This document shows, piece after piece, positions 3,001-45,293 of a DNA stretch of 64,000 bases (position 1 is its first letter; each line of letters opens with the position of its first letter). The translations under genes were made by a program, and so were the position numbers. Source of the DNA: Arenicola marina (lineage: Eukaryota > Annelida > Polychaeta > Arenicolidae); assembly GCA_964019135.1 (NCBI GenBank), contig OZ025248.1:69632119-69696118 (forward strand), written 5' to 3'. The notes below the pieces were generated by a model. The model made no database searches. It saw only the letters and a list, made by a program, of their open reading frames with translations, and was not told where the DNA came from.

Positions 3001-6000
3001 TTACACATACAGTAATATTTTCCGTAATCTTCCGTAACTTGAAACATTGTTAGCATAGAAATTATGTTTTGTGAGTCTTAGTGTATAAGTACACATGTAT
3101 GGTGTGCGATAAATACGAGGACATTTTTATAAGGCAAGATTCTGACATTTCTGTCGTTGTTGGCCTTCTAACATGTGATAACACACATGTGTCGTTCACA
3201 CAGTCAGACAACGTCTCATCGATGTTTCTGCAGAAGATCGTAACTGTCGTATTTGGTGGAATGTAGGTGTGAAATAGCTGTATGAGCAGCTTTAACCCAA
3301 CAGGATATGATGTGATATAGGATAAGGTTATGGCATTGTTCCTGTCACGGTGCATGTCACGATCAATGTGTTTCATCGTGTGTGTTTTTGACATTCAGGG
3401 CTCCCAGGTTTAAAGGGTTCCAGCAGCAGGACAGTCACGAGTTACTGCGCCACCTGCTGGATGGCATGAAGGGCGAGGAGGTCAAGGTAGGTTGGGGAGA
3501 GGCATATCGCTTGTTCACTAGTCGGGGAGATGTGTGGGCCAAGCTCTTTAATCCGATGCTACATCTGGTGAAGTTCCAGAAACTGATTGTCTGAGACTTT
3601 TTTGCTTGCTGTATCCCGCCATGTTCTGCAATCTTTGTTGCGGAACTTTGTTTGCCGACTTGCTCTCATGTTTAAGTTTGAATTTCCACGTCATAAACTT
3701 GACATCCAATAAGTGAACGACATTGGCTGGATCACAAAACAACTCCCACACAGCCACTGCGAACCAGAGTGACATTGCTCTGTTGGTTAGTAATCGCCTC
3801 ATGGCGTTTCTTGAACGACGCCGATGTGTTGATGCGCTGTGCGGTGTTATATTGCTGGCTTCCAGAGGTCACAAGCGGGCATCCTGAAGGCTTTAAATCT
3901 GTGCGAGAACGTCACCGCCAAGAAGGTAGACGAGGAAACCAAGGCCAGGCTAAAAGGTGAGACTTGACGAAAGCGTTGGCCAGAGAATGGTAAAAACCAT
4001 ATGAAAATTGGTCTGTTTTAAATTACTGGAAGATTAGGAGAAGCGAATACCTCAATAAAGATCCTCATGACTAATTCAAAGTACCTGTAGTACTGTTTAT
4101 GTTTTCCGTGATATGATTGGATGAGCGTGCCTCATGACAGTGGCTCTAGACCAATCAGCGTGGCCGTTTCATGATTCACCCCTCGTCTTGTTTCAGAGTA
4201 CGGCCGCCAGGTGAAGCACACGTTTGTAGACAGCGTCTTCGGCGGCCTGTTCCTGAGTACAGTATTATGTGAAGAATGCAAGACGGTGAGTGTCGGTCCT
4301 GTAATGTTGCCTACTGTGTGACTGTTGTCCGATGTCTTTAGGAGGTGAGCGGGGAGGGGGAGGCACTGGCGTGGCCTAGTGGTTAGCGCACTCGGCTTTG
4401 TCGAGAGACATCTGCCATGTGGGCCGGCCTGTGGGCGTTAAAGATAGAAGATAAACAACCTAATTGGCTAAAGTGTCCTTCTCAAGGTAACCAGCGAATT
4501 CCGAGTTCTGACCAGTTCTTTACCCTTCAGTCTGGCTTTAAAGACTCCTTGCGGGTCTTTGATATGCGCCACAGGCCCGTAAAAATGATAACTTGGGGAT
4601 TGTGCAACGCTTGAATATTCAAATATGACGTCATGTACTGGATGCAAGAAAAAAATGATGGGTGGGAGATTTTGTCCGGCGATTGTTGTTGCCACACTAA
4701 GGGAAATAGGTAAGCGAGAACACATTTTCCATATGGCCATCGTTCTTGATCTAGTTTTACATTCTGTAACTCCAACCCAGTAAAAAACCAGAGTGCTTAA
4801 AATTGGGAGCATTTTCTGTCGAAATGAAAAGAATTAACCGTTTGGTTTTCCCATTTGCTGAAATATATATATTTCCAGATCTTTCAAGTAGTATCAACGC
4901 TCTCATGTGGCCTTTAATGGGTAACAACTTAATGGCTGGTTGATATTCCACTACACAGCTGAAATCCTAGTTTGCTTCTGGAAAACAACATTATGTGACA
5001 TTATGTACAGTGCAAGTGGCAGATTTAGTTTTGCTTTATTGAACCCACTATTGATAAAACCTTTTATTTTGTCTATTTCAGCCTTCGCAGATATTCGAAC
5101 CTTTCCTTGATATTTCATTGCCAATAATGGAGGAAAAGGTAGGTTAATATGCTTGCATACCCCTCCTAAGAAATACGGAACAATGGAAATTGACAATCAC
5201 AATAATCGAAATCGACAATCACTTGAACACTTGGATTGATGTTGTTCTTAAATCATTAAAAAACAATAAATTGATACATTTATTTAGTGATTAAAAACTT
5301 AGTTAGACCTATGACAAATTATCTTTTCCTGACTATTTGCTCTAATACTACATTGGGGGATTACAGAGTAATTTAAGTTTCATTTGAGTCTCATTTAATG
5401 CAGATTAATTGTATGTTGTGATTCCTATTTCTTGTTCAGACGGTTCGCCCTAATAGTACGTGGGGTGGTAGGAAAAAGGACTTCGGTGCCGGATTAGCTA
5501 ATCACTTGGATCCGGTGGCTGTTTCCGGGGGCTCAGCGGATGCGACCTCTGACCTCCACCCCTCCACATCCACGTCACTACCCTCGGCGAAAGGCGGCGG
5601 CAGCAGCAAACACCAAAGTAAAAAAATGAAACAACAGCTGCGCCGGGACAGCAAGGTGGGTGGACGTTATTCATGCCTTGGATCCCATGCTTTGTGTTGA
5701 CGTTATTCATGCCTTGGATCCCATGCTTTGTGTTGACGTTATTCATGCCTTGGATCCCATGCTTTGTGTTGACGTTATTCATGCTTTGGATCCCATGCTT
5801 TGTGTTGACGTTATTCATGCCTTGGATCCCATGCTTTGTGTTGACGTTATTCATGCCTTGGATCCCATGCTTTGTGTTGACGTTATTCATGCCTTGGATC
5901 CCATGCTTTGTGTTGACGTTATTCGTGCCTTGGATCCCATGCTTTGTGTTGACGTTATTCATGCCTTGGATCCCTTGCTTTGTGTTGACGTTATTCATGC

Positions 6001-9000
6001 CTTGGATCCCATGCTTTGTGTTGACGTTATTCATGCCTTGGATCCCATGCTTTGTGTTGACGTTATTCATGCCTTGGATCCCATGCTTTGTGTGGACGTT
6101 ATTCATGCCTTGGATCCCATGCTTTGTGTTGACGTTATTCGTGCCTTGGATCCCATGCTTTGTGTTGACGTTATTCGTGCCTTGGATCCCATGCTTTGTG
6201 TTGACGTTATTCGTGCCTTGGATCCCATGCTTTGTGTGGACGTTATTCATGCCTTGGATCCCATGCTTTGTGTGGACGTTATTCGTGCCTTGGATCCCAT
6301 GCTTTGTGTGGACGTTATTCATGCCTTGGATCCCATGCTTTGTGTGGACGTTATTCATACCTCCCATGCTTTGTGTGGACGTTATTCATGCCTTGGATCC
6401 CATGCTTTGTGTGGACGTTATTCATGCCTTGGATCCCATGCTTTGTGTGGACGTTATTCATACCTCCCATGCTTTGTGTGGACGTTATTCATGCCTTGGA
6501 TCCCATGCTTTGTGTGGACGTTATTCATACCTCCCATGCTTTGTGTGGACGTTATTCATGCCTTGGATCCCATGCTTTGTGTTGACGTTATTCGTGCCTT
6601 GGATCCCATGCTTTGTGTGGACGTTATTCATGCCTTGGATCCCATGCTTTGTGTGGACGTTATTCATACCTCCCATGCTTTGTGTGGACGTTATTCATGC
6701 CTTGGATCCCATGCTTTGTGTGGACGTTATTCATGCCTTGGATCCCATGCTTTGTGTGGACGTTATTCATGCCTTGGATCCCATGCTTTGTGTTGACGTT
6801 ATTCATGCCTTGGATCCCATGCTTTGTGTGGACGTTATTCGTGCCTTGGATCCCATGCTTTGTGTGGACGTTATTCATGCCTTGGATCCCATGCTTTGTG
6901 TGGACGTTATTCATGCCTTGGATCCCATGCTTTGTGTGGACGTTATTCATGCCTTGGATCCCATGCTTTGTGTTGACGTTATTCATGCCTTGGATCCCAT
7001 GCTTTGTGTTGACGTTATTCATGCCTTGGATCCCATGCTTTGTGTGGACGTTATTCATGCCTTGGATCCCATGCTTTGTGTTGACGTTATTCATGCCTTG
7101 GATCCCATGCTTTGTGTTGACGTTATTCATGCCTTGGATCCCATGCTTTGTGTGGACGTTATTCGTGCCTTGGATCCCATGCTTTGTGTGGACGTTATTC
7201 GTGCCTTGGATCCCATGCTTTGTGTTGACGTTATTCATGCCTTGGATCCCATGCTTTGTGTGGACGTTATTCATGCCTTGGATCCCATGCTTTGTGTTGA
7301 CGTTATTCATACCTTGGATCCCATGCTTTGTGTTGACGTTATTCATGCCTTGGATCCCATGCTTTGTGTGGACGTTATTCGTGCCTTGGATCCCATGCTT
7401 TGTGTTGACGTTATTCATGCCTTGGATCCCATGCTTTGTGTGGACGTTATTCATGCCTTGGTTCCCATGCTTTGTGTGGACGTTATTCATACCTTGGATC
7501 CCATGCTTTGTGTGGACGTTATTCATGCCTTGGATCCCATGCTTTGTGTGGACGTTATTCATGCCTTGGATCCCATGCTTTGTGTGGACGTTATTCATGC
7601 CTTGGATCCCATGCTTTGTGTTGACGTTATTCATGCCTTGGATCCCATGCTTTGTGTGGACGTTATTCATGCCTTGGATCCCATGCTTTGTGTGGACGTT
7701 ATTCATGCCTTGGATCCCATGCTTTGTGTGGACGTTATTCATGCCTTGGATCCCATGCTTTGTGTGGACGTTATTCATGCCTTGGATCCCATGCTTTGTG
7801 TGGACGTTATTCATGCCTTGGATCCCATGCTTTGTGTTGACGTTATTCGTGCCTTGGATCCCATGCTTTGTGTGGACGTTATTCATGCCTTGGATCCCAT
7901 GCTTTGTGTGGACGTTATTCATGCCTTGGATCCCATGCTTTTTGTTGACGTTATTCATGCCTTGGATCCCATGCTTTGTGTTGACGTTATTCATGCCTTG
8001 GATCCCATGCTTTGTGTTGACGTTATTCATGCCTTGGATCCCATGCTTTGTGTTGACGTTATTCATGCCTTGGATCCCATGCTTTGTGTTGACGTTATTC
8101 ATGCCTTGGATCCCATGCTTTGTGTTGACGTTATTCATGCCTTGGATCCCATGCTTTGTGTGGACGTTATTCATGCCTTGGATCCCATGCTTTGTGTTGA
8201 CGTTATTCATGCCTTGGATCCCATGCTTTGTGTGGACGTTATTCATGCCTTGGATCCCATGCTTTGTGTTGACGTTATTCATGCCTTGGATCCCATGCTT
8301 TGTGTTGACGTTATTCATGCCTTGGATCCCATGCTTTGTGTGGACGTTATTCATGCCTTGGATCCCATGCTTTGTGTGGACGTTATTCATGCCTTGGATC
8401 CCATGCTTTGTGTGGACGTTATTCATGCCTTGGATCCCATGCTTTGTGTGGACGTTATTCATGCCTTGGATCCCATGCTTTGTGTGGACGTTATTCATGC
8501 CTTGGATCCCATGCTTTGTGTTGACGTTATTCATGCCTTGGATCCCATGCTTTGTGTGGACGTTATTCATGCCTTGGATCCCATGCTTTGTGTGGACGTT
8601 ATTCATGCCTTGGATCCCATGCTTTGTGTGGACGTTATTCATGCCTTGGATCCCATGCTAGAGCATATCTATGGGTTAACGTACTGGGTCTCACATCACG
8701 GCACGATAGAGCCTCGAGTAATATTACAAGGATCCGGCGAGCTGCATTAGAGAACCCTACCACTCGACCAACGCCTTGTTCTGTATTTAAAAATAATACA
8801 ATTTGCCTAAAACACGAATTTATTGTTCTTCGTGACAGAAGAAAGGCAAGAAGTCCGACTCATCACAGGACAAGAATGGGGAGACTGGCGCTGGGAAGGG
8901 GGGGGAAGCCGCTCCGACCATGGCTGACACCCAGACTGTGCCACCCACAGATGTTGCCATGGCCACCACTGGTGCTGCTGACTCTGGTACTCCGCCGAAT

Positions 9001-12000
9001 GCCAACTCGCAGAGCCAAAGTGACTGTGATATGTCAGGTGAGTGGAGTCACGTGTTAAATATGCCTGCTACGTTATTTTGGGATCGGGACAAGAATTTAG
9101 CGTAACGAGTTGCTCCACGTGGAATTCCAACAAGGGATGATGGTAACTTATTTTTAACGGTAAGTAGCGCGCTATATTTGCCGAAAAGTGAACCTGGAGC
9201 CAAACTCTGTATGGATAAGCCGTGTCTGATCTGTTCAACGTATATGCCGATCACAACACACTGACCACCAACATCTCATGGGTCCAAGACCTGGTTCCTG
9301 CATCTGGGCATGTTTCATCCATGTTTCATCCATGTTTCCTCTATGTTTCATCCATGTTTCATCCATGTTTCTTCCATGTTTCATCCCTGTTTCATCCAAC
9401 CCTATTTGCTTGCCCCGGGAGGTTTCTCGATCCAATTAAGGCTTGTGGGCGACTTATACATACCTTGTATTTATTTGCTTTCAGACGCCGACGTCGAAGA
9501 CAACATTGAAAGCGACGTGTCGAGGAGCCGCCTTCACCTCGCCAACGGTGCTGGGGTGCGGGGCGGGGAGGGGCGGGAGGCGCACTGTCCTGAGTGGCAG
9601 CAGCCCGGTATCCCTGGTGACGGCGAGTCGGGCGCCTCGCTGAGCACGGCCAGCAGCATCACCTCCATCGAAAAGTCGGACTCTGCAGGGGCCACGGAGG
9701 AGAGTACGCTCACCGAGACCTCGGCCACTGAGGAGAAGCCCATCCCTGCCGGCGGCGGTGTCAGCGCCCCTAGCGGCGGCGGCGGTGGCGGCGGGGGGTC
9801 GCATTCCGATAGCACGTGTAAAGCCAGCAGCGCCGAGGAATCTGACCACGACCGGCGCGCGCACGCCGCTTCCGTTTCCGCTTCCGCCGTCGGGGCTGAC
9901 GCGGAGGGAGCGGTCGCCGACCGACTGGCAAAGCGCCTGGAAGGCTTGCACCTCCCCGATGGCGGCTGCGGCGGTGGCGCCACCAACGGCGAGGAACCCT
10001 CCCCCCCGACTCCTAACAATGCCAGCCCCCATCCTCGCGTCCATAGCTCCTCCTCCTCCACCTCGTTACCGGCCAAAACTAACAACGCTCACCAAGCGAG
10101 TCGAAAACACGGCCGCTTGACCCCGCAAACCTCGACGGACAGCTACTCGCCGGAGGGTGGTGACCCCTCGGGGTGGCGGGCGGCCGCCCTGGAGGCCAAG
10201 CTCCGGGCCGTGCTGACCCTGGCGCCCCGCTACCAGCCCGTCTCTCAGGAGTGCTCCATCCAGTCCTGTCTCCACCAGTTCACGGCCGCAGAGCTCCTCA
10301 CCGGAAATAACAAGTTTGGCTGCGAGATCTGCACGCGGCACCGGCAACAGACCGCCGGCAAACCAGGTACGGTCACGTGGGGTCCCCGTGGGGTCAAGGA
10401 CGAACGATGTGGTCTGTGCATGCTAAAAATAGTGTTGATGAAAACTGAAGATTCGAGCAGCAATTTGTCTATGCTTCTAAGAGAAAACACTCCAAATTGA
10501 GTATCAGATGGAATATATTTGCATATTTGTTCTATATATATTTTTTATATGTAACATGAGCTGAGACTTTATAAAATAAAATAACCTACTTATAACCTAC
10601 CTATTAGATAGACTTTTGACTTGGTTTTATATTAACGTAGTATTAAATGGAGATTTTGGCTGAATTTTATTAATAAAGTTCATGACAAATAACGGTCTTA
10701 CTCGGGACAAGTGTGTGAACTATGCCTGGTGCCGTTGTTTCCAGACAAGAAGGAGACGCTGTACACGAATGCCAGCAAACAGGTGCTGCTCTTCCAGCCT
10801 CCCGCCGTTCTCACCCTGCACCTGAAGCGATTCCAACAGGTAAGCTCACCGTCTACCTCCCCCCGGGACCTCCCACGTCCACCTCTCACCGGGACCTCCC
10901 ACGTCCACCTCTCACCGGAACCTCCCACGTCCACCTCTCACCGGAACCTCCCACGTCCACCTCTCACCGGGACCTCCCACGTCCACCTCTCACCGGGACC
11001 TCCCACGTCCACCTCCCCCCGGGACCTCCCACGTCCACCTCTCACCGGAACCTCCCACGTCCACCTCTCACCGGGACCTCCCACGTCCACCTCTCACCGG
11101 GACCTCCCACGTCCACCTCTCACCGGGACCTCCCACGTCCACCTCTCACTGGGACCTCCCACGTCCACCTCTCACCGGGACCTCCCACGTCCACCTCTCC
11201 CCGGGACCTCCCACGTCCACCTCTCACCCGGACCTCCCACGTCCACCTCTCACCGAGACCTCCCACGTCCACCTCTCACCGGGACCTCCCACGTCCACCT
11301 CCCCCCGGGACCTCCCACGTCCACCTCTCACCGGGACCTCCCACGTCCACCTCCCACGTCCACCTCTCACCCGGACCTCCCACGTCCACCTCCCCCCGGG
11401 ACCTCCCACGTCCACCTCTCACCGGGACCTCCCACGTCCACCTCCCACGTCCACCTCTCACCGAGACCTCCCACGTCCACCTCCCCCCGGGACCTCCCAC
11501 GTCCACCTCCCGCCGGGACCTCCCACGTCCACCTCCCACGTCCACCTCTCACGGGGACCTCCCACGTCCACCTCTCACCGAGACCTCCTACGTCCACCTC
11601 CCCCCGGGACCTCCCACGTCCACCTCCCCCCGGGACCTCCCACGTCCACCTCTCCCCTGGACCTCCCACGTCCACCTCTCACCGGGACCTCCCACGTCCA
11701 CCTCCCCCCGGGACCTCCCACGTCCACCTCCCCCCGGGACCTCCCACGTCTACCTCTCACCGAGACCTCCCACGTCCACCTCCCCCCGGGACCTCCCACG
11801 TCCACCTCTCACCGGGACCTCCCACGTCCACCTCTCACCGAGACCTCCCACGTCCACCTCTCACCGAGACCTCCCACGTCCACCTCCCCCCGGGACCTCC
11901 CACGTCCACCTCTCACCGGGACCTCCCACGTCCACCTCTCACCGAGACCTCCCACGTCCACCTCGCCCCGGGACCTCCCACGTCCACCTCTCACCGGGAC

Positions 12001-15000
12001 CTCCCACGTCCACCTCGCCCCGGGACCTCCCACGTCCACCTCTCACCGAGACCTCCCACGTCCACCTCCCCCCGGGACCTCCCACGTCCACCTCTCACCG
12101 GGACCTCCCACGTCCACCTCTCACCGAGACCTCCCACGTCCACCTCTCCCCGGGACCTCCCACGTCCACCTCTCCCCGGGACCTCCCACGTCCACCTCCC
12201 CCCGGGACCTCCCACGTCCACCTCTCAGCGGAACCTCCCACGTCCACCTCGCCCCGGGACCTCCCACGTCCACCTCTCACCGGGACCTCCCACGTCCACC
12301 TCCCACGTCCACCTCTCACCGAGACCTCCCACGTCCACCTCCCCCCGGGACCTCCCACGTCCACCTCTCACCGGGACCTCCCACGTCCACCTCGCCCCGG
12401 GACCTCCCACGTCCACCTCTCACCGGGACCTCCCACGTCCACCTCGCCCCGGGACCTCCCACGTCCACCTCTCACCGAGACCTCCCACGTCCACCTCCCC
12501 CCGGGACCTCCCACGTCCACCTCCCCCCGGGACCTCCCACGTCCACCTCTCCCCGGGACCTCCCACGTCCACCTCCCCCCGGGACCTCCCACGTCCACCT
12601 CTCACCGGGACCTCCCACGTCCACCTCCCCCCGGGACCTCCCACGTCCACCTCGCCCCGGGACCTCCCACGTCCACCTCTCACCGAGACCTCCCACGTCC
12701 ACTTTCCCCCGGGACCTCCCACGTCCACCTCCCCCCGGGACCTCCCACGTCCACCTCTCACCGGGACCTCCCACGTCCACCTCGCCCCGGGACCTCCCAC
12801 GTCCACCTCTCACCGGGACCTCCCACGTCCACCTCGCCCCGGGACCTCCCACGTCCACCTCTCACCGAGACCTCCCACGTCCACCTCCCCCCGGGACCTC
12901 CCACATCCACCTCTCACCGGGACCTCCCACGTCCACCTCTCACCGGGACCTCCCACGTCCACCTCCCCCCGGGACCTCCCACGTCCACCTCTCACCGGGA
13001 CCTCCCACGTCCACCTCTCACCGGGACCTCCCACGTCCACCTCCCCCCGGGACCTCACACGTCCACCTCTCACCCGGACCTCCCACGTCCACCTCCCCCC
13101 GGGACCTCCCACGTCCACCTCTCACCGGGACCTCCCACGTCCACCTCTCACTGGGACCTCCCACGTCCACCTCTCACCGGGACCTCCCACGTCCACCTCT
13201 CACCGGGACCTCCCACGTCCACCTCTCACTGGGACCTCCCACGTCCACCTCTCACCGGGACCTCCCACGTCCACCTCTCCCCGGGACCTCCCACGTCCAC
13301 CTCTCACCCGGACCTCCCACGTCCACCTCTCACCGAGACCTCCCACGTCCACCTCTCACCGGGACCTCCCACGTCCACCTCCCCCCGGGACCTCCCACGT
13401 CCACCTCTCACCGGGACCTCCCACGTCCACCTCCCACGTCCACCTCTCACCCGGACCTCCCACGTCCACCTCCCCCCGGGACCTCCCACGTCCACCTCTC
13501 ACCGGGACCTCCCACGTCCACCTCCCACGTCCACCTCTCACCGAGACCTCCCACGTCCACCTCCCCCCGGGACCTCCCACGTCCACCTCCCGCCGGGACC
13601 TCCCACGTCCACCTCCCACGTCCACCTCTCACGGGGACCTCCCACGTCCACCTCTCACCGAGACCTCCTACGTCCACCTCCCCCCGGGACCTCCCACGTC
13701 CACCTCCCCCCGGGACCTCCCACGTCCACCTCTCCCCTGGACCTCCCACGTCCACCTCTCACCGGGACCTCCCACGTCCACCTCCCCCCGGGACCTCCCA
13801 CGTCCACCTCCCCCCGGGACCTCCCACGTCTACCTCTCACCGAGACCTCCCACGTCCACCTCTCACCGGGACCTCCCACGTCCACCTCCCCCCGGGACCT
13901 CCCACGTCCACCTCCCCCCGGGACCTCCCACGTCTACCTCTCACCGAGACCTCCCACGTCCACCTCCCCCCGGGACCTCCCACGTCCACCTCTCACCGGG
14001 ACCTCCCACGTCCACCTCTCACCGAGACCTCCCACGTCCACCTCTCACCGAGACCTCCCACGTCCACCTCCCCCCGGGACCTCCCACGTCCACCTCTCAC
14101 CGGGACCTCCCACGTCCACCTCTCACCGAGACCTCCCACGTCCACCTCGCCCCGGGACCTCCCACGTCCACCTCTCACCGGGACCTCCCACGTCCACCTC
14201 GCCCCGGGACCTCCCACGTCCACCTCTCACCGAGACCTCCCACGTCCACCTCCCCCCGGGACCTCCCACGTCCACCTCTCACCGGGACCTCCCACGTCCA
14301 CCTCTCACCGAGACCTCCCACGTCCACCTCTCCCCGGGACCTCCCACGTCCACCTCTCCCCGGGACCTCCCACGTCCACCTCCCCCCGGGACCTCCCACG
14401 TCCACCTCTCAGCGGAACCTCCCACGTCCACCTCGCCCCGGGACCTCCCACGTCCACCTCTCACCGGGACCTCCCACGTCCACCTCCCACGTCCACCTCT
14501 CACCGAGACCTCCCACGTCCACCTCCCCCCGGGACCTCCCACGTCCACCTCTCACCGGGACCTCCCACGTCCACCTCGCCCCGGGACCTCCCACGTCCAC
14601 CTCTCACCGGGACCTCCCACGTCCACCTCGCCCCGGGACCTCCCACGTCCACCTCTCACCGAGACCTCCCACGTCCACCTCCCCCCGGGACCTCCCACGT
14701 CCACCTCCCCCCGGGACCTCCCACGTCCACCTCTCCCCGGGACCTCCCACGTCCACCTCCCCCCGGGACCTCCCACGTCCACCTCTCACCGGGACCTCCC
14801 ACGTCCACCTCCCCCCGGGACCTCCCACGTCCACCTCGCCCCGGGACCTCCCACGTCCACCTCTCACCGAGACCTCCCACGTCCACTTTCCCCCGGGACC
14901 TCCCACGTCCACCTCCCCCCGGGACCTCCCACGTCCACCTCTCACCGGGACCTCCCACGTCCACCTCGCCCCGGGACCTCCCACGTCCACCTCTCACCGG

Positions 15001-21801: not shown

Positions 21802-22684
21802 TACAGCTTGTCGGGCAGTAACGGATCACAGGCAGTAGCGGATCACTTCGCTGTTCATGTTGAATCGTTTCTATTAAAAGCCACTAAATGTAATAAATTT
21901 GAACTTATTTCAAAGATAATTACCCACTGACTTGAAATAAGTCTAAAAACGCGTGGTTCTACCAATGTTTACATTCATTTTTACCTCAAATGCACTTCCG
22001 GTAGCGAGCTCTTTGCTCCGCGAGTTCTAGTGCGAAACAGCAACTTTCATTTCAACAGGCCATTCTTGCCAAAGTGAATACATCTGTACACAACTGAGGT
22101 AATTTTTTCATAGCTGTGTATACCATGAACCTTCAGAAAAATAATCAGATCCCTCCATAAAGCCGAATTGCTGTTGTCATCCAAATTGCGTTAGCTGCTT
22201 TCTCGGCAGTAGCGGATCAGTGACGCACGTCTTTGCCGCCAAGCTTTACCGGCAAGCTTGACCGCCAGGTGGCATGGCATGAATCATTGGTCCCATATTA
22301 GTAGCGGTACGGCTCCGAAAATATCAAAATAAGCTATGAATTACTTTACCAAACTATAAACTATGTGCCATATTAAATCGTCGACAACCTGATTTCGTAT
22401 TTTTGAGACAGTCAATGCATTATGGTACCTGTTTACTGTCAAAACAGGCCGGAAGATGGCGTGATCCTCTACTGCCTAAAGTGATCCGTTACTGCCTAAT
22501 ACAGTATCCTACAACATGGACCATTTTTAGACAGGTTGTTACCGGAGAATGATCCAGTTTGCTACACATGAAAAGAGTCTGCATTTCTGAAAGGAATGAG
22601 CCTAACATGAAGCACCAGCTCATCAGAAAACATTCTCAATCAAGCCTTAGACAAAAGTGATCCGCTACTGCCTGACAAGCTGTA
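21802..22684. mobile_element. Non-autonomous TIR DNA element, 883 bp
   Basis: The left end tacagcttgtcgggcagtaa (21802) pairs with the right end tactgcctgacaagctgta (to 22684), giving terminal inverted repeats of about 28 bp. The motif gcagtarcggatcac also recurs inside in both orientations: near 21816, 21831 and 22206, and in reverse near 22465, 22482 and 22656. The sub-terminal sequence is therefore repeated. No transposase coding is seen. Flanks do not show a convincing target-site duplication. Confidence 0.75.
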
Positions 22685-22803
22685 CACATACAACCTATAT
22701 ACAATGAACAAGTTGCATTTGACAAAATCAAATGTTTCTGCAACTTATTTGTGCTCCACGCGAGAGGTATGCCAATCAAACTAAAATTCATATTTACCCC
22801 ATT

Positions 22804-32476: not shown

Positions 32477-32482
32477 AATAAA
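32477..32482 (+). terminator. Candidate polyadenylation signal of the cyclase gene
   Basis: An AATAAA lies 428 bp after the stop codon in AT-rich DNA, before the convergent PSMD13 gene. It was identified by motif only. Confidence 0.45.
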
Positions 32483-33371: not shown

Positions 33372-36300
33372 CTATGTGAGGATGTCCTGAGCTCGGACCT
33401 GGACCAGAGACTCCATGTCCTTAACCTCTGTGCACCATCCCTCCAGCTTCTGCTGCATAACGCCGATCTGCGGGGACAAAAGATTATATACGATAATAGT
33501 ACATGTACCGATATACACGTAACGCTTAACCCGCCCTTCATACATAGCATTACACACTAATTCAGTTCAGATAACGTTTTCAAGAGGGTATTTCTTGCAC
33601 AAGCAAAAAATGCTAAAATGTGTATATGTACCAATCACAGAATTAAGCCTTATTATATATATATCATTATGTGTTATTGCGGTAAAATGCCATGTAAGAC
33701 AACAGAACACAAGATTGTGGTAACGGATGCTTGGATTGAGCAGTTGAAGAGAGACGGTTACACTTTTAAACACGGACTGACTTTTAAGCCAGTTACCGCT
33801 GTCTACTCGTCATATAATATTGTATACTACATATAAAACCATCACGGTAAAAGATGAGAAATGGTCCACGCGGTTGGGAGTACATCAGGCTGTACACCGC
33901 GGTGGCATGAAACACCGTGTTGGTCTAGCTTTATGTACATGACGGCTAAACATGAAAGGTTATATCACAATACTTGCAAGGCCAGAGTCAAAAGATCCAG
34001 ACACGAACTATTATTTTCGAACAAACTTCTGACCCCACGTGAAGTGAAGCACGTGTCTCACCTGTTCCCTGTCCAGTACTCGTGGCTGGACCCATGTCAT
34101 GTGCACCTTCTTCTCCACCTGGTCAATGGAACCCTTCACCAGGCCGAGAGACAGGGCCTTCATCACCAGTAGCTCCACCTAGCGAACAGGCGAGACACTG
34201 ATGCAATAAGTCCCCGAACGAATAGCAACGCGGCGCCGACCACGAAGCGCTCATTATCATTACTGCCTTTCAGTCCTTGCAATAAACACATAAATATTAA
34301 CGTGCTTCAGGCGCATAAATAGTGCTTATATCAAACAATCAATACGACTAATTAAATAAGATACATTTTTTTGTTTACGATTGATTGCATATTCAGGACG
34401 CTTTAACCACTGTTGGTCATATAGCGTCCGTGGGAGAAGGAAGAGAGAGTGGAGCCATGTCCCCGGGGGTAACCCCCTACTCTTTGCGAACGACATGGGA
34501 TCCTTATTCTGCGACCACACAAACATGGCCACAGCGGGGCTCGAACCAACGATCCACGTGCCGTTGGGCTCTCATGTGGCCAGAATGCTCAACGCGAGTG
34601 CTCTAACCCACTGAGATATCGGGACGGCCCCGTTGTTGTTCATGAAGCTGAGAACCAACGATGACGGGGTCACAATGAGGCGGCAATACTGAACTGGATT
34701 CTATGAACTTTGCAGGTATCGGCAACGGACTGTTAATATTCCGGGAGAACCTCATTGTTCACCACGTATCACGTGTAGTTAGGCACCCTCACGTCCGTAC
34801 ATACCTCATTGACCGGCAGGTGCGCCTCCTTCGAGATTTCGTCAAAGCTTAGTTGTCGCTTGGTTGCTGGTCTCTTGAAGGTCATCTGCAAGGCCACATG
34901 TTGTGTTGAACTTGAACTTACAGCGATAGCTTGTTTTATTTTTTATTTAAATATCATCCCTGAAAGGGATGCCAGTGAGCAGGGTTACCTCTAACAAATG
35001 CATATATACACACCGACCTGACGTTAAGGCAGTGACGGACATTTGACGAATATGATAATTGCAACAAGTCCTTACCTCCATGAGACAAAGAAGAGAAATT
35101 TTCTGCCGCATCAACAGTTCATGCTGTTTTAAGTCCGGCTACAAGTAAAAGGGTTAAAGAAAGGCTTGAAGATGAGAACAGCAACAACCCCTAAAATGTA
35201 CAAACTTCATTCATTACGTCATTTATTAAATGAATGGGTAGATCGGGGTTAATTAAAGCCATTGCTTACATACAAAATACAATAGGCTGCAATGCATGGT
35301 GAAAGTGAGGATTTAGATCGCTTCACTATACTGTGACAGTTTACAGCCATCATAACGTCATGGTGCGGCGGGCCTGGACTCTATATCTTCACTATACTGT
35401 GACAGTTTACAGCCACCATAACGTCATGGTGCGGCGGGCCTGGACTCGATATCTTCACTATACTGTGGCAGTTTACAGCCACCATAACGTCATGGTGCGG
35501 CAGGCCTGGACTCTATATCTTCACTATACTGTGACAGTTTACAGCCACCATAACGTCATGGTGCGGCAGGCCTGGACTCTATATCTTCACTATACTGTGA
35601 CAGTTTACAGCCATCATAACGTCATGGTGCGGCAGGCCTGGACTCTATATCTTCACTATACTGTGACAGTTTACAGCCACCATAACGTCATGGTGCGGCA
35701 GGCCTGGACTCTATATCTTCACTATACTGTGACAGTTTACAGCCACCATAACGTCATGGTGCGGCGGGCCTGGACTCTATATCTTCACTATACTGTGACA
35801 GTTTACAGCCACCATAACGTCATGGTGCGGCAGGCCTGGACTCTATATCTTCACTATACTGTGACAGTTTACAGCCACCATAACGTCATGGTGCGGCGGG
35901 CCTGGACTCTATATCTTCACTATACTGTGACAGTTTACAGCCACCATAACGTCATGGTGCGGCGGGCCTGGACTCTATATCTTCACTATACTGTGACAGT
36001 TTACAGCCACCATAACGTCATGGTGCGGCAGGCCTGGACTCTATATCTTCACTATACTGTGACAGTTTACAGCCACCATAACGTCATGGTGCGGCGGGCC
36101 TGGACTCTATATCTTCACTATACTGTGACAGTTTACAGCCACCATAACGTCATGGTGCGGCAGGCCTGGACTCTATATCTTCACTATACTGTGACAGTTT
36201 ACAGCCACCATAACGTCATGGTGCGGCGGGCCTGGACTCTATATCTTCACTATACTGTGACAGTTTACAGCCACCATAACGTCATGGTGCGGCAGGCCTG

Positions 36301-39300
36301 GACTCTATATCTTCACTATACTGTGACAGTTTACAGCCACCATAACGTCATGGTGCGGCGGGCCTGGACTCTATATCTTCACTATACTGTGACAGTTTAC
36401 AGCCACCATAACGTCATGGTGCGGCGGGCCTGGACTCTATATCTTCACTATACTGTGACAGTTTACAGCCACCATAACGTCATGGTGCGGCGGGCCTGGA
36501 CTCTATATCTTCACTATACTGTGACAGTTTACAGCCACCATAACGTCATGGTGCGGCAGGCCTGGACTCTATATCTTCACTATACTGTGACAGTTTACAG
36601 CCACCATAACGTCATGGTGCGGCAGGCCTGGACTCTATATCTTCACTATACTGTGACAGTTTACAGCCACCATAACGTCATGGTGCGGCAGGCCTGGACT
36701 CTATATCTTCACTATACTGTGACAGTTTACAGCCACCATAACGTCATGGTGCGGCAGGCCTGGACTCTATATCTTCACTATACTGTGACAGTTTACAGCC
36801 ACCATAACGTCATGGTGCGGCGGGCCTGGACTCTATATCTTCACTATACTGTGACAGTTTACAGCCACCATAACGTCATGGTGCGGCAGGCCTGGACTCT
36901 ATATCTTCACTATACTGTGACAGTTTACAGCCACCATAACGTCATGGTGCGGCAGGCCTGGACTCTATATCTTCACTATACTGTGACAGTTTACAGCCAC
37001 CATAACGTCATGGTGCGGCAGGCCTGGACTCTATATCTTCACTATACTGTGACAGTTTACAGCCACCATAACGTCATGGTGCGGCAGGCCTGGACTCTAT
37101 ATCTTCACTATACTGTGACAGTTTACAGCCACCATAACGTCATGGTGCGGCAGGCCTGGACTCTATATCTTCACTATACTGTGACAGTTTACAGCCACCA
37201 TAACGTCATGGTGCGGCAGGCCTGGACTCTATATCTTCACTATACTGTGGCAGTTTACAGCCACCATAACGTCATGGTGCGGCAGGCCTGGACTCTATAT
37301 CTTCACTATACTGTGGCAGTTTACAGCCACCATAACGTCATGGTGCGGCAGGCCTGGACTCTATATCTTCACTATACTGTGACAGTTTACAGCCACCATA
37401 ACGTCATGGTGCGGCAGGCCTGGACTCTATATCTTCACTATACTGTGGCAGTTTACAGCCACCATAACGTCATGGTGCGGCAGGCCTGGACTCTATATCT
37501 TCACTATACTGTGGCAGTTTACAGCCACCATAACGTCATGGTGCGGCAGGCCTGGACTCGATATCTTCACTATACTGTGACAGTTTACAGCCACCATAAC
37601 GTCATGGTGCGGCGGGCCTGGACTCTATATCTTCACTATACTGTGACAGTTTACAGCCACCATAACGTCATGGTGCGGCAGGCCTGGACTCTATATCTTC
37701 ACTATACTGTGACAGTTTACAGCCACCATAACGTCATGGTGCGGCGGGCCTGGACTCTATATCTTCACTATACTGTGACAGTTTACAGCCACCATAACGT
37801 CATGGTGCGGCGGGCCTGGACTCGATATCTTCACTATACTGTGGCAGTTTACAGCCACCATAACGTCATGGTGCGGCGGGCCTGGACTCGATATCTTCAC
37901 TATACTGTGGCAGTTTACAGCCACCATAACGTCATGGTGCGGCAGGCCTGGACTCGATATCTTCACTATACTGTGGCAGTTTACAGCCACCATAACGTCA
38001 TGGTGCGGCGGGCCTGGACTCTATATCTTCACTATACTGTGGCAGTTTACAGCCACCATAACGTCATGGTGCGGCAGGCCTGGACTCGATAGCTTCACTA
38101 TACTGTGACAGTTTACAGCCACCATAACGTCATGGTGCGGCAGGCCTGGACTCTATATCTTCACTATACTGTGACAGTTTACAGCCACCATAACGTCATG
38201 GTGCGGCAGGCCTGGACTCGATATCTTCACTATACTGTGACAGTTTACAGCCACCATAACGTCATGGTGCGGCGGGCCTGGACTCTATATCTTCACTATA
38301 CTGTGACAGTTTACAGCCACCATAACGTCATGGTGCGGCGGGCCTGGACTCGATATCTTCACTATACTGTGGCAGTTTACAGCCACCATAACGTCATGGT
38401 GCGGCGGGCCTGGACTCTATATCTTCACTATACTGTGACAGTTTACAGCCACCATAACGTCATGGTGCGGCGGGCCTGGACTCGATATCTTCACTATACT
38501 GTGGCAGTTTACAGCCACCATAACGTCATGGTGCGGCGGGCCTGGACTCTATATCTTCACTATACTGTGACAGTTTACAGCCACCATAACGTCATGGTGC
38601 GGCGGGCCTGGACTCGATATCTTCACTATACTGTGGCAGTTTACAGCCACCATAACGTCATGGTGCGGCGGGCCTGGACTCTATATCTTCACTATACTGT
38701 GACAGTTTACAGCCACCATAACGTCATGGTGCGGCGGGCCTGGACTCGATATCTTCACTATACTGTGGCAGTTTACAGCCACCATAACGTCATGGTGCGG
38801 CGGGCCTGGACTCTATATCTTCACTATACTGTGGCAGTTTACAGCCACCATAACTTCATGGTGCGGCGGGCCTGGACTCGATATCTTCACTATACTGTGG
38901 CAGTTTACAGCCACCATAACGTCATGGTGCGGCGGGCCTGGACTCTATATCTTCACTATACTGTGACAGTTTACAGCCACCATAACGTCATGGTGCGGCA
39001 GGCCTGGACTCTATATCTTCACTATACTGTGGCAGTTTACAGCCACCATAACATCATGGTGCGGCAGGCCTGGACTCGATATCTTCACTATACTGTGGCA
39101 GTTTACAGCCACCATAACGTCATGGTGCGGCGGGCCTGGACTCTATATCTTCACTATACTGTGGCAGTTTACAGCCACCATAACGTCATGGTGCGGCAGG
39201 CCTGGACTCTATATCTTCACTATACTGTGGCAGTTTACAGCCACCATAACGTCATGGTGCGGCAGGCCTGGACTCTATATCTTCACTATACTGTGGCAGT

Positions 39301-42300
39301 TTAAAGCCACCATAACGTCATGGTGCGGCAGGCCTGGACTCGATAGCTTCACTATACTGTGGCAGTTTACAGCCACCATAACGTCATGGTGCGGCAGGCC
39401 TGGACTCTATATCTTCACTATACTGTGACAGTTTACAGCCACCATAACGTCATGGTGCGGCAGGCCTGGACTCGATAGCTTCACTATACTGTGGCAGTTT
39501 ACAGCCACCATAACGTCATGGTGCGGCAGGCCTGGACTCTATATCTTCACTATACTGTGACAGTTTACAGCCACCATAACGTCATGGTGCGGCAGGCCTG
39601 GACTCTATATCTTCACTATACTGTGACAGTTTACAGCCACCATAACGTCATGGTGCGGCGGGCCTGGACTCTATATCTTCACTATACTGTGACAGTTTAC
39701 AGCCACCATAACGTCATGGTGCGGCAGGCCTGGACTCTATATCTTCACTATACTGTGGCAGTTTACAGCCACCATAACGTCATGGTGCGGCAGGCCTGGA
39801 CTCTATATCTTCACTATATTGTGACAGTTTACAGCCACCATAACGTCATGGTGCGGCGGGCCTGGACTCTATATACGTACCTGAGTTGACCACTTGGACT
39901 TCAGTTCTTCAAACTTGCCGATGTTGCCGCTGTTGAAGGCATAGAGTAGGTCGACCAGCCACTGTTTTTCAGTCTCCCACAGTTTATTGAGAATTGGATG
40001 TGCCAGCTGAGTACAGAAAAGCTTCATGTAAGGCTCACAACATAATAATAGATCATTATGTAACACTGACAAGCGCTTTGCTTCTAAAGTCAACATTAAT
40101 GTGTGCAACAGTAATTGTGAGCAACTCACATATTACGCAGTTCTTTGGTGTCTGCGCATAATATGTCATAGACGATTCCTACATACGGTTTAAATAGATT
40201 GTGTTGACTGCCGAGACATCTAGACAGTAAAGGGACGAACCAGTTCTCCAAAGTTGTAGACCCCTTTGCCAAGTAGAGCCGCCAAGCCGAGGTTAAAGGC
40301 CCTATCCAGCTGCTCACCACCTAGAGAAGTAACATTGAATCATCTCTCAAGCTTGGTTAACGCGTCAAGTTTCCTTAGAGATAAAATACATCTACACCAT
40401 ATAACTTCTACCCACTATAGTACTGTTGAATTGGCGCCAACCATGTGACCACATTGACTTTGGCGCCAACCATGTGTCCACATTGACTTTGACGCCAACC
40501 ATGTGACCACATCGACTTTGACGCCAACCATGTGACCACATGAACTTTGACGCCAACCATGTGACCACATTGACTTTGACGCCAACCATGTGACCACATT
40601 GACTTTGACGCCAACCATGTGACCACATTTACTTTGACGCCAACCATGTGGCCACATTGACTTTGACGCCAACCATGTGACCACATTGACTTTGACGCCA
40701 ACCATGTGACCACATTGACTTTGACGCCAACCATGTGACCACATGAACTTTGACGCCAACCATGTGTCCACATTGACTTTGACGCCAACCATGTGACCAC
40801 ATTGACTTTGACGCCAACCATGTGTCCACATTGACTTTGACGCCAACCATGTGACCACATCGACTTTGACGCCAACCATGTGACCACATGAACTTTGACG
40901 CCAACCATGTGACCACATTGACTTTGACGCCAACCATGTGACCACATTGACTTTGACGCCAACCATGTGACCACATTTACTTTGACGCCAACCATGTGGC
41001 CACATTGACTTTGACGCCAACCATGTGACCACATTGACTTTGACGCCAACCATGTGACCACATTTACTTTGACGCCAACCATGTGACCACATTGACTTTG
41101 ACGCCAACCATGTGACCACATTGACTTTGACGCCAACCATGTGGCCACATTGACTTTGACGCCAACCATGTGGCCACATTGACTTTGACGCCAACCATGT
41201 GTCCACATTGACTTTGACGCCAACCATGTGACCACATTGACTTTGACGCCAACCATGTGACCACATTGACTTTGACGCCAACCATGTGACCACATCGACT
41301 TTGACGCCAACCATGTGACCACATGAACTTTGACGCCAACCATGTGACCACATTGACTTTGACGCCAACCAAGTGACCACATCGACTTTGACGCCAACCA
41401 TGTGACCACATTTACTTTGACGCCAACCATGTGACCACATCGACTTTGACGCCAACCATGTGGCCACATCGACTTTGACGCCAACTATGTGACCACATCG
41501 ACTTTGACGCCAACCATGTGGCCACATCGACTTTGACGCCAACCATGTGACCACATCGACTTTGACGCCAACCATGTGGCCTCATCGACTTTGACGCCAA
41601 CCATGTGACCACATCAACTTTGACGCCAACCATGTGACCACATTGACTTTGACGCCAACCATGTGACCACATCGACTTTGACGCCAACCATGTGGCCACA
41701 TCGACTTTGACGCCAACCATGTGGCCACATTGACTTTGACGCCAACCATGTGACCACATCGACTTTGACGCCAACCATGTGGCCACATCGATTTTGACGC
41801 CAACTATGTGACCACATCGACTTTGACGCCAACCATGTGACCACATTGACTTTGACGCCAACCATGTGACCACATCGACTTTGACGCCAACCATGTGTCC
41901 ACATTGACTTTGACGCCAACCATGTGGCCACATCGACTTTGACGCCAACCATGTGTCCACATTGACTTTGACGCCAACCATGTGACCACATTGACTTTGA
42001 CGCCAACCATGTGACCACATTGACTTTGACGCCAACCATGTGACCACATTGACTTTGACGCCAACCATGTGTCCACATTGACTTTGACGCCAACCATGTG
42101 TCCACATTGACTTTGACGCCAACCATGTGACCACATTGACTTTGACGCCAACCATGTGACCACATCGACTTTGACGCCAACCATGTGTCCACATTGACTT
42201 TGACGCCAACCATGTGGCCACATTGACTTTGACGCCAACCATGTGTCCACATTGACTTTGACGCCAACCATGTGACCACATCGACTTTGACGCCAACCAC

Positions 42301-45293
42301 GTGTCCACATTGACTTTGACGCCAACCATGTGTCCACATTGACTTTGACGCCAATCATGTGTCCACATTGATTTAGACGCCAATCACGTGACCTAACGTT
42401 TTGTGGACACTCACTGGGAATGTCGTCGAGTGTGGTACAGCCGAGGTATCGGAGGGCTTCCCTGTAGTACTCGGCGTGGTTGCCCATCAGTTTGTGGTAA
42501 CTGCTCGAGAGCTCGTAGAACCGACCGTGAACTGGCGTCACTCCGTCCAAGTTATCTAGGATAGTCTGTGCTTCACCCACGATCTCCTGCAAAAACCAGA
42601 TCAAATAATTAGTAAACATAAGTAATAATAAAGTAAATACATAATCCTAGCTCGACGACTTTTATTTAGTTCTTAAAAATCACTATGGGTATATATATAT
42701 ATCAGGGTATAATTAAGAACATCAAACTATTGACATATTAACATCGTCATAAAGTGAACCGACGTTTTAGGCTGCGTGTTTGTACATGAGGATAAGAAAC
42801 AAATCCAGGTGGAGTTGCATAGAATGATCGACATTCGACACCGGTTTGTGGTTCTAAACGTGTCACAAACTCCGAGCTTCAGAAGGTTACCTCTAATTTT
42901 AAAAAGGTTTTACTGATTGCATATTGACCTTCGTGGCGTCCATTTCTCGTTCCTTGAGCTGGATGTTTCCCTTGATGATCAGCGCCAAAACAGCTGCCTC
43001 CTCGCAAGCCTTCACCTGTGTGCAACATGACCGACCATGATATATTCCAGCTGTACAGTAAACCAATCATGGCTTACAACTCCCAACTTTGTCACTAAGA
43101 AAACGCTCGTTTTTTATCCTGTTATGAATGTCAAAGATTTATCATCTGCTAAGCATATTTAGTTATTGAAGGACTACAAAATCCAAACTATAAGAAATGC
43201 TGGTATGCGTAAGCTAGGATAGTACATGTATAGGATGTTTGATCAGAAATTCTGAAAGCCTTCAGTGAAATCACCTTTTCTTTGATGCTATCCAAGAAAT
43301 CCAATGCATCTTTGATCTCTGCAAAAATATTGAAATATTTTATTCAGTTCAACATCAGCCGAAAAGAACCAGCTTGTACTGGTAACACACGATAAACGCC
43401 AAATATTCATAAGAAATTACATCAATTGCTATGCAGTTTTTCTTGTGCACTTAGCAGTAGTTATTTGTTAGATAGGATACCTTACCTTTAAATTGTCGTA
43501 CCACAAACACACACATTTCTACCAATGCCAATGGATTTATTCTGAAAATGAATAAAAGGAAGAGATAATTATATTTTCTGCATTCGATCAAAGCTATTGG
43601 CTACACACAATGAATGTCAGTAGCATAACTTTTAATAACAGTCCCATATAAACAAATTCTAAGTATATAGCTGTATCTATTACAACAGTATAGTATAGTA
43701 TTGAGGCAATATACTCGAGGCAGTAAAATATACTGTGAACATGCTACTTATTTACAAGTTCCTGCTGAATTGTTTTGCCCAAACAATGTTGTAAAAGTAA
43801 CCTCTCCCGAGAAGTAAAACATATGCCTACCTGTGTTCAAAATCAGATATAAAGTTATTATACAGCTGAAAGGCACAAAAATAGCATGATTAGAACTATC
43901 ATCATCATTTTATAAACTAGAATATTTTATGCAATACATGAATCTGGTAATACTAATTGAAACCTTGAAACGTTTATAAGATACTGTAATATACTTAAAT
44001 TTCGTCTGAGTGACATTCTCATATATACAAACGCATTCGAAACCTACTATCAGTATTTAATGTCTTTTGTTGCAAAAATCACAATAAAAAGAGAGCACAA
44101 ATGAAACTTGCTAGTTTCAGCTTACCTTAATCAGGCCATCCCCTTGGGAAAATGATGGATGCTTCACAAACTCCAACAGTCTCAAGGTCAGCTGGTGCCA
44201 TAGTCTACAAAAACATATTCAAAATCTATCTTTACAATATGCTGATATGATTCTGCCAATTTTCATCCCAGAATGAAATATTTATTTACAATGTACAAGT
44301 AAGTGATATCGCCATATACTGGTAACTGATATTTTTATAATAAAAAATGAAATAAAGTATGCAAATAATTTCTGATAATACTTTAGCATATATCCTTTGT
44401 GAAAATGTATTTACCCATATTATAATATTAATATTGCAACCAGGTCATTAACAAATGTTGAGAATGTGCAAACACCTTGCTAGTGGGTGTTTATTAAAAT
44501 CTACGAGCGGCGAGCAATACTTAGTGGTCTTGCAGAGAACAAAACAAAGCAGTTAAACTTAAATAACTAGGAATTAGAGTAAGTGTTTTGCATCAAAATC
44601 TCCAGCAACTTGTAAAGTGGACCCTGCACTATGTTCGGGATAAAATATGACGACCTACAATGTGGCTGTTAATCTGGACATATAATAACATTAAATCCCA
44701 CCACAGGCACAAGCCATCTGAAGTGGCTAGGCTTGCTTGTAGTTCTATCTCCGAAACCTAGTAGCTCCCCCCCCTGAGTCAGCAGAGCGTGCAGAGCCAC
44801 TAGGTTTCGGAGATGGAACTACAGGACTACACTATCGCCACTTTAGCTCGAGTTTATCAATGACAATGACAATGAAATGACAGATTTGAAATGTGTCAAA
44901 TCAGAAAAATGAAATCAGACCTATATAATTTCGAATTTTGGCGGTAATGATTCAGTGTCACGATCGTTGCCGTCACACTCAGTCTCACAACAGTTTGTTC
45001 ATGGCTAGATGACAGAAGCCGAGGCGAAAAGGACCGTGTGAGAATTAGGCCGAATTCGCGGCGAAGAAAGAAAAGAGTCATGACTGGTGGGCGATAATAC
45101 ATTGATAATAGAAGATTTGATGAGTCACTATGCATCTAATACCATAAATATAGTATAGAAAGCTCTGTAAGAGTTCACAATCAGATCCTTACTTCTTATT
45201 GTATAATTCCTCAAATGTTTCGAATTCTTGAGCCACATCTCCAGTGGTCTTTTTCTGTTGTTCTCCCAGGTAACTTGGTACATCTTTCGCCAT
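33372..45293 (-). CDS. PSMD13: 26S proteasome non-ATPase regulatory subunit 13 (Rpn9)
   Basis: Lid subunit of the 19S regulatory particle, a PCI-domain scaffold. Thirteen coding exons in gene order: 45293-45193, 44204-44126, 43865-43831, 43541-43486, 43318-43275, 43015-42929, 42586-42415, 40320-40241, 40006-39881, 35138-35076, 34885-34805, 34178-34062, 33467-33372. Phases agree throughout and give 378 aa; human PSMD13 has 376. The start MAKDVPSYL matches human MKDVPGFL. Colinear conserved segments include [120 protein letters not shown] and the C-terminus [11 protein letters not shown]...AQDILT. The PCI/winged-helix region lies at about residues 175-345. Introns after exon 7 (42414-40321) and exon 9 (39880-35139) hold large minisatellites. 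A further in-frame ATG lies upstream of 45293, but family alignment favours 45293. Confidence 0.97.
34390..34632 (-). mobile_element. tRNA-derived SINE, copy 2 (reverse)
   Basis: Reverse complement of the same family as 549-802 and 59940-60195. The head is at the right end (A-box-like atatctcagtgggttagagc, B box ggttcgagccc in reverse), with the shared body containing the ccccgggggtaacccc segment. Tail and target-site duplication are degraded. It lies in the PSMD13 intron between exons 12 and 11. Confidence 0.8.
35327..39874 (-). repeat. Minisatellite, 66-bp unit, about 69 copies, starting at a 5' splice site
   Basis: Tandem 66-bp units contain gtttacagccaccataacgt, catggtgcggcgggcctgga and ctctatatcttcactatact on the + strand. 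They fill most of PSMD13 intron 9 (39880-35139). In gene orientation exon 9 ends ...tcaactcag, the donor is gtacgt, and the seventh intron base starts atatagagtccaggcc, which is unit sequence. Variable sites are few: cggcggg/cggcagg, gtgacag/gtggcag, actctat/actcgat. The unit length is divisible by three, so very long open frames run through it; these are repeat artefacts. Confidence 0.97.
40436..42390 (-). repeat. Minisatellite, 29-bp unit, about 67 copies, near a 5' splice site
   Basis: Tandem 29-bp units (+ strand gactttgacgccaaccatgt plus gaccacatt) in PSMD13 intron 7 (42414-40321). In gene orientation the first recognisable unit starts about 27 nt after the donor of exon 7 (a|gtgagt). 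The first two units are the most diverged (ggcgtctaaatc, cacatgattgg). Variation is mainly gtgacc/gtgtcc/gtggcc and attga/atcga/atgaa. Confidence 0.97.
44740..44821. repeat. Inverted repeat (hairpin) in PSMD13 intron 1
   Basis: The left arm tagttctatctccgaaacct (44740-44760) is the near-perfect reverse complement of taggtttcggagatggaact (44801-44821). There is one mismatch and a 40-bp spacer containing a C-run. It is probably the end pair of a small foldback element, and outer flanking sequence (gaagtggct / gccacttta) extends the pairing imperfectly. Confidence 0.75.

What the first reader, a model, noticed from the sequence alone, without database searches (positions are those of the whole stretch)
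5656..42414. Four unrelated minisatellites start at intron 5' splice sites in two genes on opposite strands
Arrays with different units (36, 26, 66 and 29 bp) begin about 3, 3, 6 and 27 nt after the donors of USP exon 5440-5655, USP exon 10745-10839, PSMD13 exon 9 (39881) and PSMD13 exon 7 (42415). Each lies at the upstream end of its intron in transcription orientation, and none abuts a 3' splice site. Chance placement of four arrays this close to donors is very unlikely. The 36-bp array even has its first unit in register with the intron GT. This suggests a mechanism tied to the 5' splice site, such as R-loop or transcription-linked slippage, template switching, or repair of donor-proximal nicks. 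I recall that intronic minisatellites near exon-intron borders were described at amphioxus Adh; that memory should be verified.
Basis: partly seen in the sequence, partly recalled or inferred. Interest (0 to 1): 0.9.

Follow-up and report, generated by a model that had tools for sequence, protein, structure and literature searches.

The report
Intron minisatellites lying beside splice donors
Two animal housekeeping genes carry kilobase-long tandem repeats at the upstream end of otherwise very short introns; the placement is real but only mildly unlikely, and is probably what remains possible once splicing signals near the downstream end are off limits.

Summary
The four arrays and their donors are real: PSMD13 (13 coding exons) and the 3' part of a USP16-like gene splice in frame across them. 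Unique bases between exon and array are 4, 10, 6 and 21. The set was selective. It left out a fifth large intronic array (62-bp unit, 70 nt from its donor), a large array in no gene model (24-bp unit) and a small array near a 3' splice site. With introns collapsed, 4 of 5 large intronic arrays lie within 25 nt of a donor: P about 0.001 under a uniform null, 0.004 if the last 50 nt are barred, 0.04 if the last 100 nt are barred. Four of the five introns have only 131-188 nt of non-array sequence, so avoiding the 3' end nearly forces an array to the 5' end. Little points to a donor-driven mechanism: no array runs significantly into an exon, four of five arrays hold no donor-grade site (the 29-bp array holds weak ones), sense-strand GC skew has no consistent sign, and in the 36- and 66-bp arrays the most uniform units lie away from the donor. 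The 62-bp array grew in one arm of a palindromic, MITE-like element. Lancelet "mirages" are the closest precedent, but their border duplication is not seen here. Species unproven.

The parts
5656..8838 (+). USP16-like intron holding the 36-bp array; 183 nt of non-array sequence
   Evidence: in-frame gene model and GT-AG borders
5660..8659 (+). 36-bp minisatellite, 84 units, 4 nt after the exon, 179 nt before the acceptor
   Evidence: TRF, edges, units
10840..19186 (+). USP16-like intron holding the 26-bp array; 149 nt of non-array sequence
   Evidence: splits the conserved LKRFQQ / VGFSLRKVN stretch aligned to USP16
10850..19047 (+). 26-bp C-rich minisatellite, about 320 units, with an exact 2203-bp internal repeat at lag 2184
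35139..39880 (-). PSMD13 intron after the ninth coding exon, holding the 66-bp array; 188 nt of non-array sequence
35321..39874 (-). 66-bp minisatellite, 69 whole units, 6 nt after the exon in transcription direction
40321..42414 (-). PSMD13 intron after the seventh coding exon, holding the 29-bp array; 131 nt of non-array sequence
40431..42393 (-). 29-bp minisatellite, 68 units, 21 nt after the exon in transcription direction
1543..2478 (+). 62-bp minisatellite in USP16-like intron 1473-2821, 70 nt from the donor (not in the finding)
1510..2629 (+). palindromic, MITE-like element whose left arm holds the 62-bp array; its right arm, 2541-2629, is single copy; outer ends approximate
   Evidence: 1510-1600 pairs with 2541-2629 at 75% over 91 nt, E 1e-14; alignment; hairpin z -7.4 with about one unit kept
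22823..27489 (.). 24-bp minisatellite between the USP16-like gene and the ADP-ribosyl cyclase-like gene; in no gene model, though an unseen 5' UTR intron is not excluded
9309..9398 (+). 11-bp x 8 array in USP16-like intron 9038-9484, nearer the acceptor: a counterexample
178..20473 (+). USP16-like gene, 3' part: 15 exons as modelled, 14 introns; base 178 is where I cut the first exon, not a proven exon start
33372..45293 (-). PSMD13 gene, complete coding part: 13 coding exons, 12 introns

Best explanation
These are ordinary intronic minisatellites of independent origin, grown by repeated tandem duplication (slippage or unequal exchange) of a 26-66 bp stretch inside short introns. They sit at the upstream end mainly because splicing bars them from the rest. 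Four of the five introns have only 131-188 nt of non-array sequence, and an array must keep out of the donor hexamer and out of the branch point, polypyrimidine tract and their surroundings near the acceptor. What remains is the first few dozen bases. The sizes, borders and short remainders are shown. The splicing constraint and the growth mechanism are inferred.
For: 5 of 5 large intronic arrays leave at least 110 nt (110-343) before the acceptor, and none enters the first 4 intron bases. Non-array remainders (131, 149, 183, 188, 413 nt) are shorter than the 29 other introns (median 371; Mann-Whitney one-sided P 0.007; 0.028 if one unit is added back). With the first 4 and last 100 nt barred, 4 of 5 within 25 nt of a donor has P 0.040. 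The units share no common sequence beyond a marginal 6-mer (P 0.06), and four of five intronic arrays hold no donor-grade site. The 62-bp array has its own origin in a palindromic element. The 24-bp array lies in no gene model, so such arrays seem to grow without a coding-exon donor nearby.
Against: A 100-nt barred zone is generous. With 50 nt the donor excess stays at P 0.0036 (count) or 0.0002 (rank product), and even with 100 nt the rank product gives 0.003 (the 4-nt lower bound was set from the data, which favours the rank product), so some 5' preference may be real. In lancelet PGBD5 the first of the tandem repeats also abuts a 5' splice site (PMC3902484). The constraint alone does not say why unusually short introns carry the arrays, nor why 5 of 6 large arrays are intronic when introns make up 33% of the non-array bases (P 0.017).
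Confidence: 0.52

Rival explanations
1. A mutational process is tied to the 5' splice site: tandem duplications are seeded just inside the U1-binding hexamer and the arrays then grow downstream.
For: 4 of 5 large intronic arrays start 4-21 nt inside the intron, P 0.0014 under a uniform null. Mean divergence from the consensus is lowest in the donor-distal third in the 36-, 26-, 66- and 29-bp arrays (rho -0.31, -0.01, -0.39, -0.19); the trend is clear only in the 36- and 66-bp arrays. Lancelet PGBD5 repeats abut 5' splice sites. The 29-bp array holds weak donor-like sites (105 of 307 GT sites above the weakest real donor).
Against: No donor-grade site in four of five arrays, no significant extension into exons or donors, GC skew without consistent sign. 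None of 15 smaller tandem repeats in introns lies within 25 nt of a donor, though 14 of them are near chance level. The 62-bp array has another origin, and its units are slightly more divergent in the distal third (1.40 against 1.33 per unit).
Confidence: 0.22
2. Chance plus selection of the pattern by the reader: five arrays, four of them happening to lie near donors in very short introns.
Against: All five large intronic arrays lie in the first 17% of the collapsed intron; published lancelet cases also place tandem repeats at splice sites.
Confidence: 0.2
3. Classic 'mirages': tandem duplications of the exon-intron border itself.
For: Same kind of place, and similar unit sizes (Adh3 mirages 10-72 bp according to PMC3087553). 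The 29-bp array holds weak donor-like sites.
Against: No significant extension into exons in 5 of 5 (26-bp array: best extension 18 nt, 8 of them exonic, shuffle P 0.30; 36-bp array: 3 nt, P 0.10); no GT site as good as the weakest real donor in four of five arrays.
Confidence: 0.06

Closest known systems
Amphioxus 'mirages' (Adh3, globin BflGb6/BflGb9; Canestro 2002 as cited in PMC3087553, passages read)
   Same: minisatellite-like tandem repeats (10-72 bp units at Adh3, about 150-160 bp in globins) at intron edges in protein-coding genes
   Different: mirages span the exon-intron border and many of their units repeat AG/GT splice signals; here no array extends significantly beyond the intron, four of five hold no donor-grade site, and arrays reach 8 kb; species here unproven
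Lancelet PGBD5 tandem repeats (PMC3902484, passages read)
   Same: first repeat immediately abuts a 5' splice site
   Different: 2-7 copies of 60 bp and 3-6 copies of 108 bp, overlapping exons 3 and 4; here 68 to about 320 copies confined to introns for the four arrays of the finding
Minisatellites grown inside MITE or foldback element arms (recalled from general knowledge, no call)
   Same: the 62-bp array lies in one arm of a palindromic element
   Different: no comparable inverted arms found around the 36-, 26-, 24-, 66- and 29-bp arrays within 400 nt
Earthworm metallothionein intron 1 repeats (PMC12783039, passages read)
   Same: 10-19 kb minisatellite-type region inside an intron of a functional gene
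   Different: the passages read give no link to the splice donor

Membership tests
amphioxus mirage | tandem repeat spans an exon-intron border | tested here: not met
   no significant extension of any of 5 large intronic arrays into the flanking exon; the 26-bp array's best extension reaches 8 nt into the exon but 30% of shuffles do as well
amphioxus mirage | units repeat AG/GT splice signals (many, not all) | tested here: inconclusive
   not met in four arrays (0 of 46, 261, 319 and 456 GT sites reach the weakest real donor); in the 29-bp array 105 of 307 do, none reaches the lower quartile of the 34 real donors
amphioxus mirage | found in a cephalochordate | not testable with these tools
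   no genome held for the window; a pattern from a SINE-like repeat had 0 matches in viral contigs and genome contigs
amphioxus mirage | length instability between alleles or somatic cells | not testable with these tools
   one sequence only
minisatellite (VNTR) | unit about 10-100 bp, many head-to-tail copies with variant units | tested here: met
   variable number between individuals not testable
MITE-like palindromic element (62-bp array only) | long terminal inverted repeats | tested here: met
   91-nt arms, 75%, E 1e-14
MITE-like palindromic element (62-bp array only) | target-site duplication and other genomic copies | tested here: inconclusive
   no clear duplication seen by eye (no systematic search), and no second copy in the window at E 1e-4 with arrays masked; no genome to search

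The most novel reading that the evidence does not exclude
In this lineage the germline has a donor-anchored tandem-duplication process: arrays are seeded just inside the U1-pairing hexamer, independent of sequence, and grow downstream, so that 5' splice sites act as hot spots for new minisatellites and intron growth.
Probability: 0.16. Interest if true: 0.75.

Novelty: new member of a known kind. Interest (0 to 1): 0.35.

Why it matters
Intron length grows by tandem arrays in some animals, and where such arrays can settle tells which parts of an intron are free. If the 5' bias holds genome-wide and in long introns, it would point to a mutation process linked to splicing or transcription. If it holds only in short introns, it maps the splicing no-go zone.

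Tried and rejected
R-loop origin: sense-strand GC skew of the consensus units is -0.07 (62 bp), +0.06 (36 bp; 0.00 in its second commonest variant), -0.58 (26 bp), +0.12 (66 bp) and +0.29 (29 bp); rejected as a common cause, possible for the 29-bp array alone.

Units as copies of the donor: scored against a matrix from the 34 donors of the window, first on consensus units, then on every GT of every array. Rejected for four arrays. The second scan weakened my first reading for the 29-bp array: its best site is better than 18% of real donors, not 6%.

Common sequence motif: GTGGAC or its complement occurs in 4 of 6 large arrays (unit types with 3 or more copies), shuffle P 0.06; not relied on.

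RNA structure shared by the units: z-scores from +1.6 to -3.2 over six stretches; no common signal.

Small tandem repeats as a control: 0 of 15 repeats under 500 bp in introns lie within 25 nt of a donor (one-sided Fisher P 0.998), but 14 of the 15 score under 50 and are near chance level, so the contrast with the large arrays (P 0.0001, the second with one repeat's position collapsed) is weak support only. Overlapping TRF rows were merged before the count: 74 rows to 56, of which 20 lie in introns.

Species: an exact 23-base pattern from a SINE-like repeat had 0 matches in viral contigs and in genome contigs; a literature search gave no lead. Rfam gave 0 matches at gathering score and ARAGORN 0 tRNAs. 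Cephalochordate origin stays a guess.

Gene models: borders were placed by eye at GT and AG, so '34 of 34 introns are GT-AG' is true by construction. My first borders for the ADP-ribosyl cyclase-like gene did not join in frame; the corrected ones do, from 28065 to 32049, with the same introns as used. Its protein was joined by hand before that check and lacks the last 25 residues.

Papers: ten searches done, several with capped listings (15 of 79, 15 of 22 and 20 of 78 rows shown). Passages only were read of PMC3087553, PMC3902484, PMC4039745, PMC12783039, PMC2632668, PMC3152781 and PMC2812944. The original mirage paper (Canestro 2002) is not held and was not read. No genome-wide study of array distance to donors appeared in the rows shown; that is a statement about those rows only.

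Full report
Observation. Tandem Repeats Finder lists six arrays over 500 bp in the window: units of 62 bp (1543-2478), 36 bp (5660-8659), 26 bp (10850-19047), 24 bp (22823-27489), 66 bp (35321-39874) and 29 bp (40431-42393). I built exon models by hand from the sequence and checked borders and reading frame. PSMD13 on the minus strand joins in frame into a 378-residue protein in 13 coding exons and matches a solved PSMD13 chain over residues 3-378 (E 4e-147). The plus-strand gene is the 3' part of a USP16-like deubiquitinase (15 exons as modelled, 887 residues, matched in pieces, E 2e-95). With an ADP-ribosyl cyclase-like gene (Pfam PF02267; frame) and one further gene, 34 complete introns could be set. 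Borders were chosen at GT and AG, so their GT-AG ends are not independent evidence.

Completeness. The finding names four of the five large intronic arrays. It leaves out the 62-bp array (70 nt from its donor), the 24-bp array, which lies in no gene model, and a smaller 11-bp x 8 array near an acceptor. Unique bases between exon and array are 70, 4, 10, 6 and 21 for the 62-, 36-, 26-, 66- and 29-bp arrays; to the acceptor they are 343, 179, 139, 182 and 110.

Is it more than chance? An array that fills 69-98% of its intron is bound to be close to both ends, so I collapsed each array to a point and asked where it sits in the rest of the intron. All five large arrays lie in the first 17%. By simulation, 4 of 5 within 25 nt of a donor has P 0.0014 under a uniform null, 0.0036 if the first 4 and last 50 nt are barred, and 0.040 if the first 4 and last 100 nt are barred. 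Adding the 11-bp array gives 4 of 6 and P 0.0030, 0.0064 and 0.057. The rank-product test for the five gives 0.0014, 0.0002 and 0.003; its lower bound of 4 nt was taken from the data. Results on the other side: Fisher's test for nearness to either end gives P 0.038 for the five, and over all 20 intronic tandem repeats of any size there is no donor bias (Fisher P 0.54; 4 of 20 within 25 nt, P 0.10). None of these values allows for the pattern having been chosen after it was seen.

Why the 5' end? The non-array remainders of the five introns (131, 149, 183, 188, 413 nt) are shorter than the 29 other introns (median 371 nt; P 0.007; 0.028 if one unit is added back). In an intron of 131-188 unique bases, keeping clear of the branch point, the polypyrimidine tract and their surroundings leaves only the first few dozen bases. 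All five arrays do leave at least 110 nt before the acceptor. This is the simplest account, but it is inference: no splicing data exist here. It does not explain why 5 of 6 large arrays are intronic (P 0.017 against the 33% intron share of non-array bases) or why the host introns are short.

Tests of a donor-driven mechanism. (a) Anchored wrap-around alignment finds no significant continuation of any array into its donor or exon. (b) Scored with a matrix from the 34 real donors, none of the 46, 261, 319 and 456 GT sites in the 62-, 36-, 26- and 66-bp arrays reaches the weakest real donor; in the 29-bp array 105 of 307 do, the best beating 18% of real donors and none reaching their lower quartile (consensus units). 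(c) Sense-strand GC skew is -0.07, +0.06, -0.58, +0.12 and +0.29 (62-, 36-, 26-, 66-, 29-bp), so R-loops are not a common cause. (d) Divergence from the consensus is lowest in the donor-distal third in the 36-, 26-, 66- and 29-bp arrays, clearly so only in the 36- and 66-bp arrays (rho -0.31 and -0.39), and slightly highest there in the 62-bp array. Units are not independent, so the P values printed there are only a guide. Recent growth away from the donor speaks against continuing amplification at the donor, though it would fit seeding at the donor followed by downstream growth.

A separate origin for one array. The 62-bp array lies in the left arm of a palindromic element: 1510-1600 pairs with 2541-2629 (91 nt, 75%, E 1e-14; alignment). 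With about one unit kept, the stretch folds into a long hairpin (z -7.4 against 100 mononucleotide shuffles). Only the left arm has been multiplied. No such arms were found within 400 nt of the other five large arrays.

Relation to what is known. PMC3087553 (passages read) describes amphioxus mirages as tandem repeats spanning exon-intron borders, many with AG/GT signals, unstable in length, and apparently without effect on regular splicing. PMC3902484 (passages read) reports lancelet PGBD5 repeats whose first copy immediately abuts a 5' splice site. The present arrays resemble these in place and unit size. They fail the border-spanning feature; the splice-signal feature fails in four arrays and is unclear in the 29-bp array. 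Whether the window is cephalochordate could not be tested.

Verdict. Real arrays, donors that fit, a modest 5' bias, no support for a specific donor-tied mechanism; most likely ordinary minisatellites confined by splicing in short introns, and a new example of a kind already reported in lancelets.

Noticed in passing
window 1510-2629: Palindromic MITE-like element in a USP16-like intron; a 62-bp segment of its left arm has been multiplied about 15-fold while the right arm stays single copy.
   Followed up: partly
window 10850-19047: The 26-bp array holds an exact 2203-bp repeat at lag 2184: a very recent large duplication or an assembly artefact.
   Followed up: no
window 10844-18564: The 26-bp array is free of stop codons over about 7.7 kb in all three sense frames, so retention of this intron would extend the upstream reading frame by some 2,500 codons.
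   Followed up: no
window 548-808, 34395-34640 (-), 59938-60190: Three copies of a SINE-like repeat (about 250 bp) whose 5' part looks tRNA-like by eye, 88% mean column identity.
   Followed up: partly
window 21795-22704: Terminal inverted repeats of about 52 nt (73%) with further internal copies around a stretch of about 0.9 kb: a probable non-autonomous DNA transposon just upstream of the 24-bp array.
   Followed up: no
window 53312-53799, 54301-54800, 45984-46354: Dispersed repeat family with terminal inverted repeats (80% identity between two copies, inverted partial copies at 46 kb).
   Followed up: no
window 28065-32049: Predicted protein that joins a chitin-binding Peritrophin-A domain (CBM_14, weak match just above its cut-off) to an ADP-ribosyl cyclase domain.
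   Followed up: no
window 5660-8659, 10850-19047, 22823-27489, 40431-42393: GTGGAC or its complement occurs in units of four of six otherwise unrelated arrays (shuffle P 0.06).
   Followed up: partly
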